Assembly: GCF_025244705.1 (NCBI RefSeq)
Contig: NZ_CP104207.1
Location: forward strand, 248,001 to 312,000
Direction: 5' to 3'
DNA from: Sphingopyxis sp. PET50
GTDB lineage: Bacteria; Pseudomonadota; Alphaproteobacteria; Sphingomonadales; Sphingomonadaceae
DNA: 64,000 nucleotides
Below the pieces are notes generated by a model. That model was not told the origin of the DNA. It was given only the letters and a program-made list of their open reading frames with translations, and made no database searches. The translations under genes and the position numbers were made by a program. Shown here in pieces: positions 49,971 to 63,227 of the stretch. Position 1 is the stretch's first letter. Every line of letters starts with the position of its first letter.

Positions 49971-50948
49971 ATCCCCCTCCCTAAAAGGGAGGGGTTAGGG
50001 GTGGGTTTGGCGAGCGACGCTCGCCGTTCTTCCTTTGGCCACGGTTCAAGGCATCGACCCACCCCCGGCCCCTCCCCTTTCAGGGAGGGGAGTAAAGGCT
50101 GATCCGGGGCCTTCGGCCGCTGGACGAGGCTGACCAGGACGAAGGATATGATCATCAGCAGATACCAGCTGCCGAGTTTCTCGACACCGACCATGTGCCA
50201 GCCGTGGTTCTGGCTGGGATAGGTCCAGGCGCGGGCGAAGGTGCCGATATTCTCCGCGAACCAGATGAAGAGGGCGACCATGGCCCAGCCGAGGAGCAGC
50301 GGCATCCGGCGGTGGATGTGGAGCGGGCGGAACCAGACCTGGCAGCGCCAGAAGAGCAAAGCCGTTGCGGCGAACAGGAACCAGCGGATGTCATAGAGCC
50401 AATGGTGGGCGAAGAAATTGACGTAGATCGCGGCGGCGAGCACATAGCTGGTCCAGGCCGCATGGATAGAAGGTGTAGCGGAAATCGAAGATGCGCCAGA
50501 CGCGCGCGATATAGCTGCCCACCGCGGCATACATGAAGCCCGAGAAGAGCGGCACCGCGCCGATGTGGAGCAGGCTCGCTTCGGGATATTGCCACGACCC
50601 GGCGGCGGTCTTGAACAATTCCATCACCGTGCCGACGATGTGGAAGATCAGGATGACGATCGCTTCCTTCGGCGTCTCCAGCCGGAATGCCAGCATACCG
50701 AACTGGATCAGGATGGCGCCGATGGTGATCGCGTCATAGCGGTGCAGCGGCGCATTCTCCGGCCAGAAGAGATGCGCGCCGAGCAGCAGCGCGAGCATCA
50801 AGGCGCCGAACAGGCAGGCCCAGCCCTGCTTGAAGCCGAAGACGAGGAATTCGAGGAACCAGCCGCGCGGTCCCGGTTCGACCGCCATCGCCTCCAGCCG
50901 GGCGCGGACGGCGTGGAAGCGGCTGTGGCCGCGTCCGGGTTCAGACAT
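49901..50948 (-). CDS. DUF817 integral membrane protein, frameshifted, tail read through a repeat
   Basis: The N-terminal frame has EFLVFGFKQGWACLFGALML, FHIVGTVMELFKTAAGSWQY and LFSGFMYAAVGSYIARVWRI, characteristic of DUF817. The second frame supplies AIYVNFFAHHWLYDIRWFLF and further helices. The break is near 50455-50475. The last 60 or so residues come from the palindromic repeat at 49973-50092 and from antisense of the M24 gene, so the real stop is uncertain and probably near 50095. Function unknown. The start overlaps the amj stop by eight bases, so the two genes are coupled. Confidence 0.75.
49973..50092. repeat. Palindromic element after the M24 peptidase gene
   Basis: Two GC hairpins, CCCCTCCCTAAAAGGGAGGGG and CCCCTCCCCTTTCAGGGAGGGG (allowing one bulge), flank a 75-bp centre with GGTGGGTTTGG and its complement-like CGACCCACCCC. 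The layout is like the element inside mfd. Confidence 0.85.
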
Positions 50949-51902: not shown

Positions 51903-53081
51903 TCAATGCTTGCGCGTCAACTCGCGCATCGCGTCGTCGAGGCCCCCGAGCGTCAGCGGGTACATGCGGTCGTTCATCAACTGTTTGATCAGCTTGACCG
52001 ACTGGGTGTAGCCCCAATGCTGCTCGGGCACCGGGTTCAGCCACACCGCGGCGGGATAGACATGGGTGATGCGCTGCAGCCAGACCGCGCCCGATTCCTC
52101 GTTGAAATGTTCGACGCTACCGCCCGGATGGGTGATTTCATAGGCGCTCATCGACGCGTCGCCGACGAAGATCACCTTGTAGTCATGGCCATATTTGTGG
52201 AGGATGTCCCACATCTGGTGGCGTTCGGACCAGCGGCGCTTGTTGTCCTTCCACACGCCCTCGTATGGGCAATTGTGGAAGTAGAAGAATTCGAGATTCT
52301 TGAATTCGCTCGTCGCGGCGCTGAACAATTCCTCGCACAGCTTGATGAAGGGATCCATCGACCCGCCGACGTCGAGGAACAGCAACAGCTTGACCGCATT
52401 ACGCCGCTCGGGCCGCATCCGGATGTCGAGCCAGCCCTGGCGCGCGGTGCCGTCGATCGTGCCGGGAATGTCGAGCTCGTCGGCCGCGCCCTCGCGCGCG
52501 AATTTGCGCAGGCGGCGGAGCGCGATCTTGATGTTGCGGGTGCCGAGTTCCTTGGTGTTGTCGAGATTGGCGAACTCGCGCTTTTCCCAGACCTTCAGCG
52601 CGCGCTTGTGCTTGCTTTCGCCGCCGATCCGCACGCCCTCGGGGTTGTAGCCCGAATTGCCGAAGGGCGAGGTGCCGCCGGTGCCGATCCACTTGCTGCC
52701 GCCCTCGTGGCGCTTCTGCTGTTCCTCGAGCCGCTGCTTCAGCGTCTCCATGATCTTGTCCCAGTCGCCGAGCGATTCGATCGCGGCTATTTCCTCGGGG
52801 GTCAGGAATTTCTCGGCGACCGCCTTCAGCCAGTCGGCGGGGACATCGACGGGGTTCTGGCCATAATCGGTGAGCAGGCCCTTGAAGACCTTGTTGAACA
52901 CCTGGTCGAAGCGGTCGAGATGCCCCTCGTCCTTCACATAGATGGCGCGGCTGAGGTAATAGAATTGCTCGGGGCTGCGGTCGATCGCCTCGCGGTCGAG
53001 CGCCTCCAGGAGCAGCAGATGCTCCTTCATGCTCACGGGAATGCCCGCGGTGCGGAGTTCTTCGAGAAAGCCGAACAGCAT
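51903..53081 (-). CDS. VWA-domain protein of the CoxE/MoxR-associated type
   Basis: 392 residues. The N-terminal half is helical (LFGFLEELRTAGIPVSMKEH, EEIAAIESLGDWDKIMETLK). The VWA domain begins near residue 220 with LLFLDVGGSMDPFIKLCEE. The MIDAS site reads DVGGS instead of DxSxS, as is common in this subgroup. FYFHNCPYEGVWKD and VIFVGDASMSAYEI follow. These proteins normally act as substrate adaptors for a MoxR AAA+ ATPase in metal-cofactor insertion or complex maturation. The likely partner is encoded at 58374, separated by about 5.3 kb. Confidence 0.85.
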   Translation of the reverse strand: MLFGFLEELRTAGIPVSMKEHLLLLEALDREAIDRSPEQFYYLSRAIYVKDEGHLDRFDQVFNKVFKGLLTDYGQNPVDVPADWLKAVAEKFLTPEEIAAIESLGDWDKIMETLKQRLEEQQKRHEGGSKWIGTGGTSPFGNSGYNPEGVRIGGESKHKRALKVWEKREFANLDNTKELGTRNIKIALRRLRKFAREGAADELDIPGTIDGTARQGWLDIRMRPERRNAVKLLLFLDVGGSMDPFIKLCEELFSAATSEFKNLEFFYFHNCPYEGVWKDNKRRWSERHQMWDILHKYGHDYKVIFVGDASMSAYEITHPGGSVEHFNEESGAVWLQRITHVYPAAVWLNPVPEQHWGYTQSVKLIKQLMNDRMYPLTLGGLDDAMRELTRKH

Positions 53082-53351: not shown

Positions 53352-53921
53352 TTACCCCGGACCCTCGCCCCGGCCCGCAGCGCGAAACAGTGCCGCCGAC
53401 GCCAGCCATAGGGCGGCGAAAAATCCGCTGATCGCCAGCACGCCCCACGCGCCCATCGGCTCGACCCGCGCGGTCGAGGGGGCGGTCGCGATGACGAGGC
53501 CGAGCAGCATCTGCACGATCGCGACGCCCAGCATCGCCCGCGCCATGCCGCGCGCGCGAAACTCGGCGGCAAAACCGCCCACCGCCGCCGCGAGCACCAG
53601 CAGGAAGAAGCCGAGGTTGGCCGGATTGTCCTCGCTGCCGACGATGCCCACCGCGACGTTGATCCACACGAGCAGAAAGGCCGCAGCCACCGCCAGCGCG
53701 GCGCCGGCACGATATGCCAAGCTCGTCGAGAGCCGCCCGGCGAATTCATAGAGCAGCAACGCGCCCCCGATCATGAATGCAGCGAACAGGAAATCGCTGC
53801 CGGTCCAGTTCCACGCGTCGCCGATATGCATCATGATCAACGGCACCGTCAGCAGCGCCGCCGCGGCGCTCCATCGCGCCACCCGCCACCGGTTCGAGCG
53901 CGCTCCGACTTCGTCCACCAT
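53352..53921 (-). CDS. Small multi-pass membrane protein of unknown function
   Basis: 189 residues from ATG 53921. Five or six hydrophobic segments are seen, for example WSAAAALLTVPLIMMHIGDA, LFAAFMIGGALLLYEFAG, LAVAAAFLLVWINVAVGIVG and MLGVAIVQMLLGLVIATA. NWTGSDFLFAA is typical of small sphingomonad membrane proteins, but I assign no function. It is divergent from the regulator at 54008; the 86-bp gap probably holds both promoters. The 270 bp between this gene and the VWA gene hold nothing I can recognise. Confidence 0.7.
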   Translation of the reverse strand: MVDEVGARSNRWRVARWSAAAALLTVPLIMMHIGDAWNWTGSDFLFAAFMIGGALLLYEFAGRLSTSLAYRAGAALAVAAAFLLVWINVAVGIVGSEDNPANLGFFLLVLAAAVGGFAAEFRARGMARAMLGVAIVQMLLGLVIATAPSTARVEPMGAWGVLAISGFFAALWLASAALFRAAGRGEGPG

Positions 53922-54007
53922 TCGCTTGCCTCCTTTGCCATTTGCGGCTTTACAGTGGCGCACCGGACGATGACGGGCATGAGCAACATCTGAGATTTCG
54001 CTGAAAA

Positions 54008-55079
54008 ATGGCCCCGCACCAGTTCCATTTCGATCCTTTCACCGTCGATGCGCACGACCGCTGCGGCTGTGCCGTGACGGCATCCCGCTCGAGATCAGCA
54101 ACCGCTATTTCGACGCGCTCGCGCTGTTGCTCCGCGAGAAGGGGCGGCTGGTGACCAAGGATCGCTTCATGGACGAGGTCTGGCGCGGCGTGCCGGTCAC
54201 CGACGAAGCGCTGACCCAGTGCATCCGCGCGCTGCGCCGCGTGCTGAGCGACGATGCTGGGCGGCCGCGCTTTATCGAGACGGTGCCGAAGCATGGCTAT
54301 CGCTTCATCGGGTCGATCGAAACCGCCGGAACGCCCCTGGCTCGGCGCCCCGTCGACGGACCGCCGCCGGAACGCCCTGCTGCTCGCGCGGCGCCGCGAC
54401 GATCGGGGGCGGGATCGCCGGTATCATGGGCGGGCTCTTCTATGGACTCAGCGTCGATCTGCAGGCGATGCGGCCCGCGCTGGGTGCGACATCGGTGCTC
54501 TTCGTCCTGCTCGCGATGAACATGCTCGTCGGGCTGGCCGGCGGCATCGGCATAGGTCTGGGAATCGCAGCGGCCGACTATGCGCCGACCCGCCGCTGGC
54601 ACTGGAGCCTGTTGGGCGGTGCCGTCGGCGGACTGCTCGTCGGCGGCCTAACCGAACTCGTCGGGCTCGACGCCTTCAACCTGCTCCTGGGCCGGTCGCC
54701 GGGCAATATCACCGGTGCGGCCGAAGGCGCGTTCCTCGGCGCGGCGGTGGGGCTGGCGGTGTGGACGGCGCGGCGGCGCGAGTGCAGCCTGGCGCAAAGC
54801 GCCGCCATCGGCGGTTTGACCACGGGCCTCGCGGGCTTGCTGATCCCGCTCCTCGGCGGAACCTTGTTCGCGGGCAGCCTCGATCGCCTCCTGACGCAGT
54901 TTCCAGACGCCCGCTTCCGGCTCGATGCGATCGGCCGGCTGTTCGGCGAAACCGGCTTCGGCCCGGTCAGCCGGGTCGCGACGGCGGGGATCGAGGGGCT
55001 GCTGTTCGGCGTCTGCCTACTGGCCGCGATGTTTTTCTGTTGGCATGGCGCGGTCCGCGCGGCAGGCGGCGCGCGATGA
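54008..55079 (+). CDS. CadC-like regulator: winged helix fused to a glycine-rich membrane domain, frameshifted
   Basis: Starts MAPHQFHFDPFTVDAHDR. After a one-base loss near 54060-54071 it continues LREKGRLVTKDRFMDEVWRG and RALRRVLSDDAGRPRFIETV with VPKHGYRFIGSIE, the trans_reg_C winged helix of CadC/ToxR-type regulators. One or two more breaks between 54331 and 54395 lead into about 220 hydrophobic residues with many GG pairs (GGGIAGIMGGLFYGLS, GLAGGIGIGLGIAAADYA, LLGGAVGGLLVGGLTELVG). I infer a membrane-anchored transcription factor. Its stop overlaps the deacetylase start by three bases, so it heads that operon and may respond to envelope state. Confidence 0.75.
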
Positions 55080-55917
55080 GTTTCGCCGAAACCGCCGCCG
55101 AAGCCTGGGCCCCCGTTCGCGGTTGGCTAGGCGCGAGCGCGAAGCACGGCCCGCGCGGCGCGGATCCGGCTGGAGGCGATGCGGCAGGGCCCGGCGACCG
55201 CCCCCTTTGTCCGCTGCCTCTATGCCCATGCCGTCTTCCCCGACACCGTCCCGACCTTCCGTGCCTTCCTCCGCACCGCCAAGCAGGAGGGCGAATTCGT
55301 CGACACGGCGACGCTGCGCGCGATCATCAGGGACGGCAAGCCGTCCGACGGCCGCTTCTTTCACCTGAGCTTCGACGACGGTTTCGCCAGCGTCTATGAA
55401 GCCGCGCGGCCCGGTGATGGAGGAGGAGCGCGTCCCCTACACGATGTTCGTCGCGACCGACCTGATCGACGCCGATCCCGAGACGCTGAACAGCTATTTT
55501 GCGCATATGCCCGCCTATCGCGCGCGCGTACGCACGCTCGACTGGGGTCAGGCGAAGGCCGCCGCCGAAGGGATCGGCGAGATCGGCTGCCACACGCGCA
55601 CCCATGCGCGGCTGTCGCAAATCTCGGGCGACCCCGCGCGCCTGACCGACGAAATCGCGGGCGCCAGGGCGATTATCGAGCGCCATGTCGGCCAGACGTG
55701 CGACAGCTTCGCCTGGCCCTATGGCACCGCGAGCGACATCGACGCCGCGGGCCGCGCGGCGATCGCCGATGCCGGCTTCACCAGCAATTTCAGCGCGGTG
55801 CGCGGCGCGGTGCAGCCCGGCACGACCGACGTCATGAACATCCCGCGCCACCAGCTCGAATTTCACTGGCCGCTCCACGAACTGATGGTCTGGGCGCGAG
55901 GGTTTCGCGAGCCATGA
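55076..55917 (+). CDS. Polysaccharide deacetylase (CE4/NodB-like), frameshifted
   Basis: Corrected length is about 280 residues. The NodB signature begins with HLSFDDGFASVYEA (TFDDG-equivalent). The metal-binding HxxxH-type motif is in GCHTRTHARLSQ, and the further conserved DSFAWPYG matches the RxPY/G region. Breaks are at 55126-55132 (GCTAGGC signature) and at 55410-55412 (one C too many). No signal peptide is seen, so cytoplasmic action on a lipid-linked or nucleotide sugar is more likely than on mature wall. It overlaps the regulator and the formyltransferase genes at both ends (ATGA). Confidence 0.82.
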
Positions 55918-56693
55918 CGCTGCGCGTCGTCCTGATGACCAGCGGCCCGGTCGGCGGCGCGGGCGCGGTGCTCGATCGGCTGACCCGCATGCCCGAGGTC
56001 GAGATCGCCTGTCTGATCGTCTCCGAGACGATCGTCGCGAAGCGCAGCCGCAAGAAGATGCTGCAAAAGGTCTGGAAGATCGGCCTGCTCGGCGCATTGA
56101 ACGGCGTGCGCATCCGCAAATGGTTCGGCCACAATATGACCATCGACGCGCGCGAAGTGGCGAAGGCGCACGGCATTCCGATCGTCACCGTGCCGCGCGT
56201 CAACTGCGACGAGACCGTCGCCGCGCTCCGGCAATATGCCCCCGACCTCGGCATCTCGACCGGCAACAGCTACATCGCCTCGCGCGTCTTCACTGTGCCG
56301 CGCGAGGGTTTCATCAATTTCCACGGCGAACTGCTGCCCGAATATCCCGGCGCGCAGAGCGTCATCTGGCCGATCTATTTCGGGCGGACGCAGACCGGCT
56401 ATACGATCCACCGCATCGACAAGGGCATCGACACCGGCGACGTGCTCTACAAGCGCGCGGTCGACATCGACTTCCAGCCGAAGCTGGCCGACACGATCCG
56501 CCGCACCAACGACAAGGTGCGCGAGGAACTGCCCGAGGCCTTTGCCGCGCTGTTGTCCGACTGGGACGCCCATGCCGCTGCGGCAACCAGCCAGAAGGCC
56601 GAGCGCCATTTCACCACCCCGACCTTCCGCGAATATCTGCGCATCGAGCGCAACAACAAGCGGCTCTGGCGCGAAAGCCTTCGCGGGAGCTGA
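55914..56693 (+). CDS. Formyltransferase-family protein (sugar N-formyltransferase-like)
   Basis: 259 residues. The catalytic Asn-His-Asp triad of folate-dependent formyltransferases can be traced: N in GISTGNSYIA, H in FINFHGELLPEYPGAQS and D in IDKGIDTGDVLY. It is shorter than methionyl-tRNA formyltransferase and lacks its C-terminal domain. It resembles enzymes that formylate amino sugars using 10-formyl-tetrahydrofolate. The coupled upstream deacetylase could free the amine that this enzyme formylates. Acceptor unknown. A basic insert (KRSRKKMLQKVWKIGLLGAL) distinguishes it from purine enzymes. Confidence 0.82.
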   Translation: MTLRVVLMTSGPVGGAGAVLDRLTRMPEVEIACLIVSETIVAKRSRKKMLQKVWKIGLLGALNGVRIRKWFGHNMTIDAREVAKAHGIPIVTVPRVNCDETVAALRQYAPDLGISTGNSYIASRVFTVPREGFINFHGELLPEYPGAQSVIWPIYFGRTQTGYTIHRIDKGIDTGDVLYKRAVDIDFQPKLADTIRRTNDKVREELPEAFAALLSDWDAHAAAATSQKAERHFTTPTFREYLRIERNNKRLWRESLRGS

Positions 56694-56911
56694 TTGCTGC
56701 GCCGCACAAATATTTTCGCCAGCCCCTTAAAATCTTCATCTTTCACCGCCACATAGCGGCCGGACGGACGTCGGACGGCCTTCAGCCGCCGTTCAGGCAC
56801 CGACCGGTAAATGGCGAATATTCCCAAACGATGGGAATGGATTCGAACCAGGAAGACGAAAGAAAGCCGGGTCGGATCCGGAAACCCCAGCAAAACCGGC
56901 AAAGACAAAAA

Positions 56912-56928
56912 TTGGCACGCCCGTTGCT
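56912..56928 (+). promoter_or_regulatory. Sigma-54 promoter upstream of pspC
   Basis: TGGCACGCCCGTTGCT at 56913-56928 matches the -24/-12 consensus TGGCAC-N5-TTGCW exactly at the invariant GG and GC, with correct spacing. The predicted start is about 12 bases downstream, and the ATG of pspC is 57 bp from the -12 element. Phage-shock genes are classically transcribed by RNA polymerase with sigma-54 and activated by PspF, so the context agrees. Confidence 0.8.
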
Positions 56929-56984
56929 TAGCGACGGGCAGAAACGCGGGGCGGAACCCGCGGCCATCAGGAAAGACGAAAAAA

Positions 56985-57284
56985 ATGGACAACGACACCA
57001 CCAATCTCTTCCGCCGCCGCGATACGATGTTCGGTATCTGCGAGGCCGTGGGCCAGGATTTCGGCTTCAGCCCGACGTGGCTGCGGCTTGCCTTCATCGC
57101 GCCGCTCTTCTTCTTCCCGGTGCAGACCTTCGCCGCCTATTTCGGCCTCGGCGCGGTCGTGCTCGCCTCGCGGCTGGTCTTCCCGCGTCAGTCGGCCGCT
57201 CCGGCACAGCCCGCTCTGACCCAGGTCGAGGCGGCGGCGGACCGCCCGGCGGAAACGGCGCAGGACCTCGCACTCGCAGCCTGA
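56985..57284 (+). CDS. pspC: PspC-domain membrane protein (phage-shock protein C-like)
   Basis: 99 residues. The PspC signature is LFRRRDTMFGICEAVGQDFG (family: ...R..r..MigGVCaGlA.yfg). The membrane segment is WLRLAFIAPLFFFPVQTFAA with YFGLGAVVLASRLV. A short Ala/Pro-rich tail follows. PspC senses envelope stress with PspB and binds PspA; neither partner is in the window. ATG 56985 is preferred because it follows the sigma-54 promoter, although the frame is open further upstream. A strong terminator follows, so it may be monocistronic. Confidence 0.88.
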   Translation: MDNDTTNLFRRRDTMFGICEAVGQDFGFSPTWLRLAFIAPLFFFPVQTFAAYFGLGAVVLASRLVFPRQSAAPAQPALTQVEAAADRPAETAQDLALAA

Positions 57285-57378
57285 TCGGCGCTGGGCGGGC
57301 CCTCCCTCTCCCCCGCGCCCGCCCGCGCCACGACCCGCACGGCCCGAGTCCTCTTCGGACACGCCGTGCCGCAACAGG

Positions 57379-57413
57379 GACCGGCAAGCATCCCCCGCTT
57401 GCCGGTCTCTTTT
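57379..57413 (+). terminator. Rho-independent terminator after pspC
   Basis: Perfect 11-bp stem GACCGGCAAGC / GCTTGCCGGTC with a seven-base loop, followed by TCTTTTG. It lies 95 bp after the pspC stop. Confidence 0.85.
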
Positions 57414-57538
57414 GTCTCCGCCTGACACAACGCTTGGTCGATTGCCCGCCCCCTCATAAACGCGCTGTTTACGACGTTGCGCTATGACTGGCGGCTGAAG
57501 TCCGGCAGCCCATGCTGCCCGCAGGCAAGGAAGACGCG

Positions 57539-58210
57539 TTGAGCCAGTCGCCCCAGCTCCAGCCGCAGACACGCAACGTCGCCGAAATGCTCGATCTCGC
57601 TGGTCGCCGGCTGAGGGCACCGGCGCGCATCGCCACGTGCGCGCCGCGCGGGCTGTCGAACGGACCCGACGCCATGCGCAACCTGGCCGATGCCGTCCAT
57701 TTCCTCTGCCTGCTCCACGGCCGTCACCCCGGCGTCATCGACCTCGCCGCGCGCAAGGCGGTCGATCCCGTCTCGCGCCAGTGGATGGACGAAGCCGCCG
57801 ACGCCTTTGCCCAGGAACGCGCCTTCCTGTCGAAAATCGCCGCCGCGGTCGGCCCGGTGCCGAGCACCCAGGGCCAGGACCAGTGCGAGGCCGCGGTCGC
57901 GGCGCAGCGCAAGGCGCTCGACATGCTCGCCGAATCGGACCGCCACGGCTGCGCGGTCGGCGCCGCGATCGCGCTGACCCTCGACTGGCGCACGATCCGC
58001 GTGCTGCTCGACATCAGCGCGCAGCGGCTCGACATGGCGCCGCCGCGCTGCGCGCTGCCCGACCTGCGCGAGACCGCCCGCCTCGCCGGCGCGGTCGCCG
58101 ACACCCCCGCCGCCGAACGCGCGCTGGTGTTCGGCGCGCAGCAGCTGATTGCCCAGCACAGCGGCCTGTGGGACCTGCTTGAGGCGCGTGCCGCGAGCCG
58201 CACTCACTAA
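57539..58210 (+). CDS. Conserved sphingomonad protein (DUF6975-like), function unknown
   Basis: About 223 residues, soluble and mostly helical by composition, with no membrane segment. Recognisable pieces are AMRNLADAVHFLCLLHGRHP, SRQWMDEAADAFAQERAFLS and CEAAVAAQRKALDMLAESDR, followed by GAAIALTLDWRTIRVLLDIS. Proteins of this kind are restricted to Sphingomonadales as far as I recall. TTG 57539 has AAGGAAG at proper distance; ATG 57512 is the alternative. It is followed by a repeat and then moxR. Confidence 0.7.
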   Translation: MSQSPQLQPQTRNVAEMLDLAGRRLRAPARIATCAPRGLSNGPDAMRNLADAVHFLCLLHGRHPGVIDLAARKAVDPVSRQWMDEAADAFAQERAFLSKIAAAVGPVPSTQGQDQCEAAVAAQRKALDMLAESDRHGCAVGAAIALTLDWRTIRVLLDISAQRLDMAPPRCALPDLRETARLAGAVADTPAAERALVFGAQQLIAQHSGLWDLLEARAASRTH

Positions 58211-58302
58211 ATCGTCGTCCCCGCGCAGGCGGGGACCGCTGGCGGCCTTGCTCAGCACCGTTGCAGAAACCGACGACGGCCCCCGCCTTCGCGGGGGCGA
58301 CG
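58211..58302. repeat. Palindromic intergenic repeat (CGTCGTCCCCGC family)
   Basis: Arms CGTCGTCCCCGCGCAGGCGG and CCCCCGCCTTCGCGGGGGCG with inner CCGACGACGG lie between the DUF6975-like gene and moxR. Each half forms its own hairpin. Confidence 0.75.
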
Positions 58303-58373
58303 CTTCGCTTGCACCCTCTCCCTCCCCCCGCTATGCCCCTTGACGTTCACGTTAAGGGAAAGGCTCTCCGCCC

Positions 58374-59219
58374 ATGCGCTTCGAAGGAACCAGCGCCTAT
58401 ATCGCGACCGACGATCTGAAGGTCGCGGTCAACGCCGCGACATTGCTCCGCCGCCCGCTGCTCGTGAAGGGCGAACCCGGCACCGGCAAGACCGTGCTGG
58501 CCGAGGAAATCGCGAAAGCCTTCGACGCGCCGCTGATCACCTGGAACATCAAGTCGACGACCAAGGCGCAGCAGGGGCTCTACGAATATGACGCGGTGGC
58601 GCGCCTGCGCGACGGCCAGCTTGGCGAAGAGCGCGTCCATGATATCCGCAACTATATCCGCCAGGGCAAATTGTGGGAGGCTTTCACCAGCCCCAAGCTC
58701 CCCGTCCTGCTGATCGACGAGATCGACAAGGCCGACATCGAATTCCCGAACGACCTGCTCCAGGAACTCGATCGCATGGCCTTCCACGTCTATGAGACCG
58801 ACGAGACGATCGTCGCGAAGGAACGCCCGATCGTCGTCATCACCTCGAACAATGAAAAGGAACTGCCCGACGCCTTCCTGCGCCGCTGCTTCTTCCACTA
58901 CATCAAATTCCCCGACCGCGACACGATGGCGGCGATCGTCGAGGTGCATTTCCCCGGCATCCAGAAGACGCTGGTCAGCCGCGCGATGGATATTTTCTAC
59001 GAAGTCCGCGACGTTCCCGGCCTCAAGAAAAAGCCCTCGACGAGCGAGCTCATCGACTGGCTGAAACTGCTCCTCGCCGAGGACATGCCGCTCGAAGTGC
59101 TCCAGAACCGCGACGTCGGCAAGGCGATCCCGCCGCTCCACGGCGCGTTGCTCAAGAATGAGCAGGATGTGATGCTCTTCGAAAAGCTGGCCTTCATGGC
59201 GCGGCGCCAAGGGAGCTGA
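58374..59219 (+). CDS. MoxR-family AAA+ ATPase
   Basis: 281 residues. Walker A is KGEPGTGKTVLAEEIAKAF, Walker B is VLLIDEIDKADIEFPNDLLQ, sensor 1 is IVVITSNNEKELPDAFLRRC with the arginine finger, and a C-terminal lid domain follows (STSELIDWLKLLLAEDMPLE). MoxR ATPases work with VWA proteins as chaperones for metal insertion or complex assembly. The CoxE-type VWA at 51903 is the expected partner and usually neighbours moxR directly; here they are divergent and 5.3 kb apart. Confidence 0.93.
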   Translation: MRFEGTSAYIATDDLKVAVNAATLLRRPLLVKGEPGTGKTVLAEEIAKAFDAPLITWNIKSTTKAQQGLYEYDAVARLRDGQLGEERVHDIRNYIRQGKLWEAFTSPKLPVLLIDEIDKADIEFPNDLLQELDRMAFHVYETDETIVAKERPIVVITSNNEKELPDAFLRRCFFHYIKFPDRDTMAAIVEVHFPGIQKTLVSRAMDIFYEVRDVPGLKKKPSTSELIDWLKLLLAEDMPLEVLQNRDVGKAIPPLHGALLKNEQDVMLFEKLAFMARRQGS

Positions 59220-59248
59220 GCGAAATCGCTCCCGCCCTATGAAGCAAC

Positions 59249-59355
59249 CGTTTCCCCGAGCGAAGACGAGGGGCCCGTTCGAGCGCAGCGAGAACCAGCG
59301 ACGTCGCTGCCTCGACTTCGCTCGGCATAGCCCCTCGTCTTCGCTCGGGGAAACG
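59249..59355. repeat. Palindromic repeat with 26-bp perfect arms, copy 2
   Basis: Arms at 59249-59274 and 59330-59355 are exact reverse complements with the core TTCCCCGAGCGAAGACGAGG. The centre is the reverse complement of the centre of the copy at 51769-51875. It lies in the convergent gap between moxR and the chemoreceptor gene. Confidence 0.9.
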
Positions 59356-59380
59356 GAGTGAAACAGCGTGGGCGCGGGCG

Positions 59381-60779
59381 CTAAAGCTGGTACGCCACCT
59401 CGACATCGCCCCAGCGGCGCCCGTTGATCACCACCGGCATATAGACATTGCGCACCGTGACATAATTGGTGCCGTCGCCTTCCTGGCGATAGACCGCCAT
59501 GAAGAAGGGCGCATTGCTCTTTTTCGCCGCCTTGTCGGTCTCGTCGAACAGGATGCGGCCGTTGCGGCAATGCGCGGTGTCATGCTCGATATCGCCCGTC
59601 GGCGCGCGCGAGCAGTCGGTGATGTGCGTCGGCAGGAATCCGTTCATGTCGCCCGCCGACGACATCTTCACCTCGGGATGGTTGGCGACGATATGGTCGA
59701 ACAGCGGCCGCCAGTTGACGTCGGCCCAGTCGCACAGCGTGGTGCGGAAACGTTCGGGATTCGACCCCGGCACGCGGACATAATCGGTGTCGAACAATTG
59801 CTCCATCGACAGCTCGCCCTTGGCGATGGCGAGTTCGGCGATCGCGACGAACTGGTCGCGCACCCGCGACGCCAGCTCGACCACCGCGGAATCGCGCGGG
59901 GACACGCCCGCCGAAATCACCGCATTGAACATGCGGTTGGAGACGCTCTCCATCTTCAGGATCGAATCGCGCGTGCCGTCCAAGGTGGCGCTGTTGTCGC
60001 GCACCGACGCGACGACGCGGTCGACCGCCTCGCGCACCTTGGCGCCATTGGCGTGGACCATCGCGCTCGACTGCGCGATGCGGTCGCTCTGGTCGTCGAG
60101 CAGCGCGACGAGGTGCGTCGCGTCGTGCAGCGCGTCGGTGATCGTCTCGAACTGCGCCTCGGCGCGGCTCGACTGTTCGACCCCCGACTGGATCTCGGTG
60201 ACCAGCCCGCTCGCTTCGGTCGCTAGGCTGCCTATGCTGCGGCGGATTTCGTCGGTGGCGCTGCGCGTATTCTGCGCCAGCTTCTTCACCTCGGCGGCGA
60301 CCACCGCAAAGGTCCGCCCGGCGTCGCCCGCCCGCTCGGCCTCGATCGCGGCGTTGAGCGCGAGCATATTGGTGGTCTTGGCGATCGACTCGATCGACTG
60401 GCTGACCTGCTGCACCTGCTCCATCACCGCGGCGAAATTGGTGACATGCGTGCCGAGCCGCGCCACGAGGTCGATGACCGACCGGAATTCGGTGACCGCG
60501 GCATTGACGCGCTCGGCGCCGGTGTCGAGCTGTTCGCAGGCACGCGCCGAGAGCAATTTCGCTTCGTCGGTCGAATCCGCGATCTGGCGCTGGTCGGATT
60601 CGAGGCTGACGACGAACTCCTCGAGCCTAGCCGAGCTCGACGATCTGCCGATCCATCTGGTCGGTCGACCGCTTGATCCGCCCCGCCGCCTCGCTGCACC
60701 CGACGGCAAGCTCGCCACAGTCGCTGGCGACCGACTGGTCGAGGATCGGAGCCGCCGGATTGATGGAATCGAATTTCAT
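59381..60779 (-). CDS. Soluble methyl-accepting chemotaxis-type protein with C-terminal sensor, frameshifted
   Basis: About 465 residues, no membrane helix. The start [20 protein letters not shown] joins, after the break at 60624-60630 (GCCTAGC), a signalling coiled coil. That coil includes [20 protein letters not shown] and [20 protein letters not shown], followed by [12 protein letters not shown]. The C-terminal 180 residues ([42 protein letters not shown]) look like a Cache/PAS-type sensor. The order is signalling first, sensor last, the reverse of classical receptors. Such cytosolic proteins report intracellular or redox state to CheA. Confidence 0.82.
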
Positions 60780-60926
60780 TGCGCCACCCACGTCGAATTG
60801 ATCGCAAAGCTATGACCGACAATGGTTAACGCGGGGTCAATGGGTGGTGGAGACGCCGCTGGGCCGGGAAGGCGGGGCGATGGAAAGGTGGCGGGATCGG
60901 GGTGGAAGGCGGACCGTCCTCTATGT

Positions 60927-61006
60927 CCGTTCGTGTCGAGCGAAGTCGAGACACCCCGAAGGCGCACGCGACCAATGGGTGTCTCGACTTCGCTCGACAC
61001 GAACGG
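60927..61006. repeat. Palindrome with 29-bp perfect arms
   Basis: Arms at 60927-60955 and 60978-61006 are exact reverse complements (core CGTGTCGAGCGAAGTCGAGA) with a 22-nt loop. One arm also occurs in the mosaic repeat at 42799-42902. The 426-bp gap between the chemoreceptor and rpoD (60780-61205) holds this, the next repeat and the rpoD terminator, and no gene. Confidence 0.9.

Positions 61007-61205: not shown

Positions 61206-63227
<2,022 letters not shown>

What the first reader, a model, noticed from the sequence alone, without database searches (positions are those of the whole stretch)
54008..56693. Coupled operon: membrane-bound regulator, sugar deacetylase, sugar formyltransferase
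A CadC-like winged-helix protein with a glycine-rich multi-helix membrane domain overlaps a NodB-type deacetylase, which in turn overlaps a short formyltransferase. The chemistry suggests deacetylation of an N-acetyl sugar followed by N-formylation, switched on by a membrane sensor. I do not know a described system with exactly these three parts. It could modify a surface glycan or lipid-linked precursor, and pspC and amj nearby also concern the envelope.
Basis: inference. Interest (0 to 1): 0.6.

Follow-up and report, generated by a model that had tools for sequence, protein, structure and literature searches.

The report
Deacetylase–formyltransferase pair beside stray regulator
A Sphingopyxis genome carries two overlapping genes, inherited together, that look built to swap an acetyl group for a formyl group on an amino sugar; the membrane-bound regulator in front of them appears to be a neighbour by rearrangement rather than part of the set.

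Summary
The three genes exist, but only two belong together. A NodB-type (CE4) deacetylase and a short GART-fold formyltransferase overlap by ATGA in the window, in 8 of 8 Sphingopyxis relatives and in one distant alphaproteobacterium (38-40% identity). Active-site residues are invariant, median dN/dS is 0.16-0.19, and carriers form one clade (99/95). The CadC-like membrane regulator is not part of this unit. In 7 non-carriers it sits between rpoD and pspC beside its own divergent membrane-protein partner. In the 8 other carriers the pair occurs there without regulator or partner. Only the window has both. Best reading: a cytoplasmic deacetylate-then-formylate step on a nucleotide- or lipid-linked amino sugar of an envelope glycan. 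Enzyme class is shown; reaction order and substrate are inferred. A nonulosonic-acid substrate is unlikely (NeuB in 0 of 7 named carriers). Ten full-text searches turned up no description of the pair.

The parts
55076..55917 (+). NodB/CE4-type (PF01522) deacetylase gene, intact in relatives (279-325 aa open frames); two frame breaks in the window as sequenced (between 55126 and 55170, and near 55410)
55914..56693 (+). GART-fold (PF00551) formyltransferase, 259 aa, intact; residues N135, H137, D173 invariant
55914..55917 (+). ATGA overlap of deacetylase stop and formyltransferase start, kept in 8 of 8 Sphingopyxis relatives and in G180
54008..55079 (+). winged-helix (PF00486) regulator with multi-helix Gly-rich membrane domain; frame breaks near 54066 and between 54339 and 54435; neighbour, judged not part of the conserved unit
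55076..55079 (+). ATGA overlap of regulator stop and deacetylase start, seen in the window only; probably a product of rearrangement (inference)
53352..53963 (-). small membrane protein without Pfam match, divergent partner of the regulator (present beside it in 7 of 7 at-site relatives)
56985..57284 (+). PspC-domain gene, right-hand border of the variable site
57512..58210 (+). DUF6975 gene (PF22391), conserved right flank, used for the tree
58374..59219 (+). MoxR-like AAA ATPase, conserved right flank
61206..63227 (-). rpoD (sigma-70); elsewhere it is the left border of the site, here on the far side because the block between rpoD and the VWA gene is inverted
51903..53081 (-). VWA/CoxE-like gene, the other edge of the inverted block

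Best explanation
The functional unit is the two-gene cassette deacetylase + formyltransferase (55076-56693). Both proteins lack a signal peptide or transmembrane segment by hydropathy, so they most likely act one after the other in the cytoplasm. The CE4 deacetylase removes an N-acetyl group from an amino sugar in a nucleotide-activated or lipid-linked precursor. The GART-fold enzyme then puts a formyl group, from 10-formyl-tetrahydrofolate, on the freed amine. The product would be an N-formyl amino sugar in an envelope glycan. The cassette was gained once in a Sphingopyxis clade at a variable site between rpoD and pspC and is kept under purifying selection. The membrane regulator is an independent occupant of that site, brought next to the cassette in this strain by rearrangement. 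Shown: pairing, overlap, intact catalytic residues in relatives, constraint, single clade, non-linkage of the regulator. Inferred: order of reactions, sugar substrate, glycan destination, the rearrangement.
For: Pair and ATGA overlap in 8 of 8 distinct Sphingopyxis relatives and in G180 at 40% / 38% identity. Catalytic residues invariant: N135, H137, D173 in the formyltransferase; D106, D107, H178, H182 and W219-P220-Y221 in the deacetylase (their roles are recalled). Median dN/dS 0.19 (36 pairs) and 0.16 (28 pairs, window left out because it is broken). Carriers form one clade at 99/95 in a 33-row tree of one gene. Best solved relative of the formyltransferase is a GDP-4-amino-4,6-dideoxy-mannose formyltransferase, 5vyr, E 7.9e-15. 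The deacetylase leans to PgaB, IcaB, HfsH and NodB, all GlcNAc-type deacetylases, and to PgaB structures (4u10, 5bu6). No 19-residue window above hydropathy 1.6 in either enzyme. Each of 8 Sphingopyxis carriers including the window genome has 3-4 further PF00551 genes, so this one is an extra. A sugar with formyl where acetyl is usual has precedent: D-GalNFmA in Pseudomonas aeruginosa O-specific antigen (PMC4773840, one passage seen).
Against: No glycan gene lies beside the pair in Sphingopyxis. In G180 the only hint is flgL-like and flgK genes, convergent and not in one operon. Substrate specificity cannot be read from the families; both enzymes fall below every curated equivalog cut-off. The formyltransferase profile matches methionyl-tRNA formyltransferases almost as well as sugar ones (5.7e-13 against 7.9e-15). 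The deacetylase is frame-broken in the window itself, so the pathway may be dead in this strain.
Confidence: 0.5

Rival explanations
1. Arn-like logic in the reverse order: the formyltransferase adds a temporary formyl group to an amino sugar, and the NodB-like enzyme later removes it as a deformylase (as ArnA and ArnD do for Ara4N).
For: The ArnA formyltransferase domain is among the matches (E 2.2e-14; 1yrw, E 9.4e-10); the ArnA/ArnD pathway is a recalled precedent for a GART plus NodB-type pair. Reading frames overlap, so equimolar action fits either order.
Against: No ArnD family was among the deacetylase matches at E 0.01 or better, whereas GlcNAc-type deacetylases were (that NCBIfam holds an ArnD model is recalled). 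No transferase or dehydrogenase accompanies the pair.
Confidence: 0.13
2. The substrate is not a sugar: for example an N-acetylated amine, peptide or siderophore precursor is deacetylated and formylated, or the formyltransferase is a tRNA or purine enzyme.
For: Both superfamilies contain non-sugar enzymes (recalled); Fmt, PurN and linear gramicidin formylation domains are all matched by the profile.
Against: Scores far below the Fmt and PurN cut-offs and 3-4 other PF00551 genes per carrier already there. Closest deacetylases act on GlcNAc polymers. No biosynthetic genes next to the pair.
Confidence: 0.17
3. One reading: a three-gene operon in which the membrane regulator senses and switches on the deacetylase and formyltransferase.
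For: In the window the three genes follow one another with ATGA overlaps, so co-transcription in this strain is plausible.
Against: Regulator absent beside the pair in 8 of 8 other carriers; present without the pair at the same site in 7 genomes with its own divergent partner. In 3 carriers a 52-54% relative lies elsewhere. 7 of 8 other carriers keep a common leader upstream of the deacetylase that is replaced in the window by the end of the regulator.
Confidence: 0.05
4. Nonulosonic-acid modification (N-formyl pseudaminic or legionaminic acid), for example on flagellin.
For: N-formyl legionaminic acid with an adjacent formyltransferase gene is reported in Halorubrum (PMC6137143, passages seen); PseJ matches the profile weakly (6ci2, E 9.3e-7); flgL-like and flgK genes adjoin the pair in G180.
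Against: NeuB (PF03102) is found in 9 of 80 Sphingopyxis and in 0 of 7 carriers or the window genome (the MAG was not searched). Flagellin is in 77 of 80 and so does not track the pair.
Confidence: 0.03
5. In this strain the cassette is a dying remnant: the frame breaks are real and the formyltransferase survives only by lag.
For: Two breaks in the deacetylase and two in the regulator; loss of the leader seen in other carriers.
Against: Unrelated conserved neighbours (DUF817 gene, chemotaxis receptor) are broken too, and the contig scores 87.04% complete, which points to assembly indels. The window formyltransferase keeps pN/pS at or below 0.36 against 8 relatives.
Confidence: 0.12

Closest known systems
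Brucella-type GDP-perosamine N-formyltransferase (PDB 5vyr-5vyu; the name WbkC is recalled)
   Same: GART fold with N-H-D residues aligned over 95 residues, best solved relative
   Different: Only residues 92-186 align; there the amine comes from an aminotransferase, with no deacetylase needed (recalled)
ArnA formyltransferase domain with ArnD deformylase
   Same: A GART formyltransferase working with a NodB-type hydrolase on one amino sugar (recalled)
   Different: Reverse order; ArnA at 52.8 of 777 bits, no ArnD match at E 0.01; ArnA is fused to a decarboxylase and in a larger operon (recalled)
PgaB, IcaB, HfsH, NodB deacetylases
   Same: CE4 fold family with D-D and H-x3-H metal motifs; WPYG as in PgaB 4u10
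   Different: 17-34 bits against cut-offs of 240-400; no signal or membrane segment here by hydropathy; none is described as paired with a formyltransferase in the searches made
CadC / HilA-type winged-helix membrane regulators (for the neighbour gene)
   Same: N-terminal OmpR-type winged helix before membrane helices
   Different: CadC 53.8 of 400 bits, over the winged helix only; several Gly-rich hydrophobic segments in place of one helix and a periplasmic sensor (recalled)

Membership tests
CE4 / polysaccharide deacetylase (PF01522) | Pfam model above its cut-off | tested here: met
   56.5 bits against 23.1 in relative L042; 45.7 on the window fragment
CE4 / polysaccharide deacetylase (PF01522) | metal and catalytic motifs (D-D, H-x3-H, Pro-Tyr-Gly motif; roles recalled) | tested here: met
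   D106, D107, H178, H182, P220, Y221 invariant in 7 rows including G180
PgaB, IcaB, HfsH, NodB equivalogs | score above curated cut-off | tested here: not met
   34.0/321.9, 26.1/248.35, 23.6/400, 17.2/240 bits
ArnD deformylase | match to an ArnD model | tested here: inconclusive
   no ArnD model among matches at E 0.01; presence of such a model in the library not checked
GART formyltransferase (PF00551) | Pfam model above cut-off and N-H-D residues | tested here: met
   67.0 bits against 26.1; N135, H137, D173 invariant in 7 rows including G180, aligned with those of 5vyr
Methionyl-tRNA formyltransferase (Fmt) | curated cut-off; C-terminal domain | tested here: not met
   62.2/201.5 bits; only PF00551 matched, no C-terminal domain family
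PurN | curated cut-off | tested here: not met
   46.6/150.1 bits
Sugar N-formyltransferases as a functional class | acts on an amino sugar with 10-formyl-THF | not testable with these tools
   only sequence nearness to 5vyr; AlphaFold models unusable
CadC/ToxR-type regulators (neighbour gene) | N-terminal winged helix (PF00486) | tested here: met
CadC/ToxR-type regulators (neighbour gene) | score above CadC cut-off | tested here: not met
   53.8/400 bits in the intact relative from G020
Three-gene coupled operon as proposed | conserved linkage of all three genes | tested here: not met
   0 of 8 other carriers
Two-gene deacetylase-formyltransferase unit | conserved adjacency and overlap | tested here: met
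   8 of 8 relatives and G180

The most novel reading that the evidence does not exclude
A self-contained two-gene N-acetyl-to-N-formyl exchange cassette, travelling outside glycan gene clusters, that rewrites one amino sugar of a surface glycan or glycosphingolipid already made by the host (for example to change phage or immune recognition), inserted at a variable site behind the housekeeping sigma-factor gene.
Probability: 0.3. Interest if true: 0.55.

Novelty: new variant of a known kind. Interest (0 to 1): 0.33.

Why it matters
Known sugar N-formyltransferases mostly act on amines made by aminotransferases (recalled). A dedicated deacetylase plus formyltransferase pair would be a minimal route from an ordinary N-acetyl sugar to an N-formyl sugar, and because it is a single two-gene block present in one Sphingopyxis clade and absent from its sister genomes, its effect can be tested by deletion or transfer in laboratory strains. 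It also shows how a first look at one genome can mistake a rearrangement for an operon.

Tried and rejected
Nonulosonic acid and flagellin glycan as substrate: NeuB in 9 of 80 congeners, none of them one of the 7 carriers; flagellin in 77 of 80. I compared the 20 kb beyond fliC in 4 carriers and 4 non-carriers: the carriers share an acyl-CoA dehydrogenase gene after fliC (family checked on one); the other ORFs there were read by eye only, without a family search, and I saw nothing that ties the pair to flagellin.

Wider homologues at E 1e-20: only G180 among 385 genomes of the class, none besides the window genome among 397 of the family or 398 of the phylum; these samples overlap and the tool scores at most six candidates per genome. 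In G180's family, and again its order, which gave the same 9 genomes, only G180 itself. Viral contigs: none. Plasmids: 7 partial matches by the formyltransferase, none covering 80%, 2 by the deacetylase without a formyltransferase among the genes listed nearby (that gene table is incomplete), none by the G180 formyltransferase. Phages: one partial match. The single genome-contig scan gave two Sphingopyxis loci.

Structure: both AlphaFold models have mean pLDDT about 35 and were not used; no fold search was made.

Papers, all ten searches used. No deacetylase-formyltransferase pair for N-formyl sugars turned up in the listings. Passages only were seen of PMC4773840, PMC6137143, PMC12815270 and PMC5484520; [quoted passage not shown] All other papers were seen as listings only.

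Results against my reading: no glycan gene beside the pair; the formyltransferase profile also fits tRNA formyltransferases; the pair is rare outside one clade; the tree rests on one gene.

Full report
What is there. The window lies in a 3.80-Mb single-contig genome whose closest relatives are Sphingopyxis. At 54008-56693 the sequence encodes, on the + strand, a winged-helix protein with a hydrophobic C-terminal region, a PF01522 deacetylase and a PF00551 formyltransferase. The junctions are ATGA overlaps at 55076-55079 and 55914-55917.

What was missed. Only the formyltransferase is one open frame. The regulator runs through three frames and the deacetylase through three. Comparing 13 neighbouring genes with relatives, 4 are broken, with 6 breaks in all; two of the four, a DUF817 gene and a chemotaxis-receptor gene, have nothing to do with this locus (names). 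With a completeness score of 87.04% for one contig, assembly indels are the simplest cause. Real decay is not excluded.

The enzyme pair is real. In 8 of 8 of these the deacetylase lies directly upstream, intact, with the same ATGA overlap. Searches at E 1e-20 found one further member, G180, among 385 genomes of the class, none besides the window genome among 397 of the family and none among 398 of the phylum. In G180 the formyltransferase (40% to the window) and the deacetylase (38% to KK2) are again adjacent with the ATGA overlap. The active-site residues are invariant across this span: N135, H137, D173 and D106, D107, H178, H182. Median dN/dS is 0.19 over 36 pairs for the formyltransferase and 0.16 over 28 pairs for the deacetylase, the latter without the broken window copy. 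In a tree of the flanking DUF6975 gene (33 rows) the 9 carriers, window included, form one group at 99/95.

The regulator is a separate matter. Its membrane domain has relatives in 18 of 80 Sphingopyxis genomes, the window genome included. I fetched 12 of the other 17. In 7 of these 12 it sits between rpoD and pspC (rpoD was seen in 6 of the 7; in the seventh the contig ends), beside a divergent membrane protein that is also in the window (53352-53963), and without the enzyme pair. In the other 5, three of them carriers, it is a more distant relative (50-54%) at another place. In the 8 carriers other than the window, neither regulator nor membrane partner was found in the fetched stretch; in one of them, G001, rpoD was not in the stretch either. 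In 17 further genomes none of the four genes lies at the site (rpoD seen in 16, pspC in 16). Only the window has both sets. So the rpoD-pspC interval is a variable site with four states: empty, regulator pair, enzyme pair, both.

How the window arrangement arose (inference). The block from the membrane protein to the chemotaxis receptor is inverted relative to rpoD and the VWA gene. In 7 of 8 other carriers a common leader precedes the deacetylase; in the window the end of the regulator stands there instead. A rearrangement that fused the two neighbours explains the overlap without any functional link.

What the pair does. Family scores place the deacetylase nearest PgaB, IcaB, HfsH and NodB, and the formyltransferase between the general formyltransferase families, all far below curated cut-offs. 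By profile the best solved relative of the formyltransferase is a perosamine-type sugar N-formyltransferase (5vyr, E 7.9e-15), closely followed by Fmt (3q0i, E 5.7e-13). The carriers each own 3-4 other PF00551 genes and G180 two others, so the enzyme is an extra. Neither enzyme shows a membrane segment by hydropathy. The most economical reading is a cytoplasmic acetyl-to-formyl exchange on an amino sugar precursor. Order of action and substrate are not shown. The opposite order, formylation and later deformylation as in ArnA/ArnD, is the main mechanistic rival; no ArnD model was among the deacetylase matches at E 0.01.

Substrate clues tested. NeuB is present in 9 of 80 congeners but in none of the 7 carriers or the window genome, which makes nonulosonic acids unlikely. 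In G180 the pair adjoins a flagellin_N (FlgL-like) gene and flgK, but in Sphingopyxis flagellin is in 77 of 80 genomes and the fliC surroundings gave no link. Formyl in place of acetyl on a sugar has precedent in the Pseudomonas aeruginosa O-specific antigen (D-GalNFmA; one passage of PMC4773840) and in archaeal legionaminic acid (passages of PMC6137143).

Verdict. A real, conserved two-gene enzyme cassette of uncertain substrate, next to an unrelated regulator. Modest interest: the parts are of known kinds; the pairing was not found in ten full-text searches of an open-access library, which does not show that it is undescribed elsewhere.

Noticed in passing
53352-55079; L064-L070: The winged-helix regulator with a Gly-rich multi-helix membrane domain has its own divergent partner, a 185-187-aa membrane protein without Pfam match, in 7 of 7 at-site relatives; this looks like the real regulatory pair. 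On the tree the regulator pair comes and goes (6 changes).
   Followed up: partly
53352-61000 against 61206-63227 and 51903-53081: The block from the membrane protein to the chemotaxis receptor is inverted relative to rpoD and the VWA gene when compared with relatives; an assembly error was not excluded.
   Followed up: partly
50084-50948 and 59384-60791: Frame breaks in a DUF817 gene and a chemotaxis-receptor gene, arguing for many indels in this assembly.
   Followed up: yes
L042:3449-6280 and L039:3749-6580: DnaG carries an intein-like insertion with a LAGLIDADG_3 domain in its zinc-finger region (family checked in L042 only); 2 of 9 dnaG genes looked at have it, the window genome (L101) does not.
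   Followed up: partly
L034, L036-L042, upstream of the deacetylase: A common leader (ACAAA..CTTTG, then TTTGCCATTGGC-like) in 7 of 8 other carriers, possibly the promoter of the pair.
   Followed up: no
L093-L096, just after fliC: A gene of about 400 aa follows fliC in 4 of 4 carriers and 0 of 4 non-carriers fetched; it is an acyl-CoA dehydrogenase in the one checked. May only reflect the clade.
   Followed up: no
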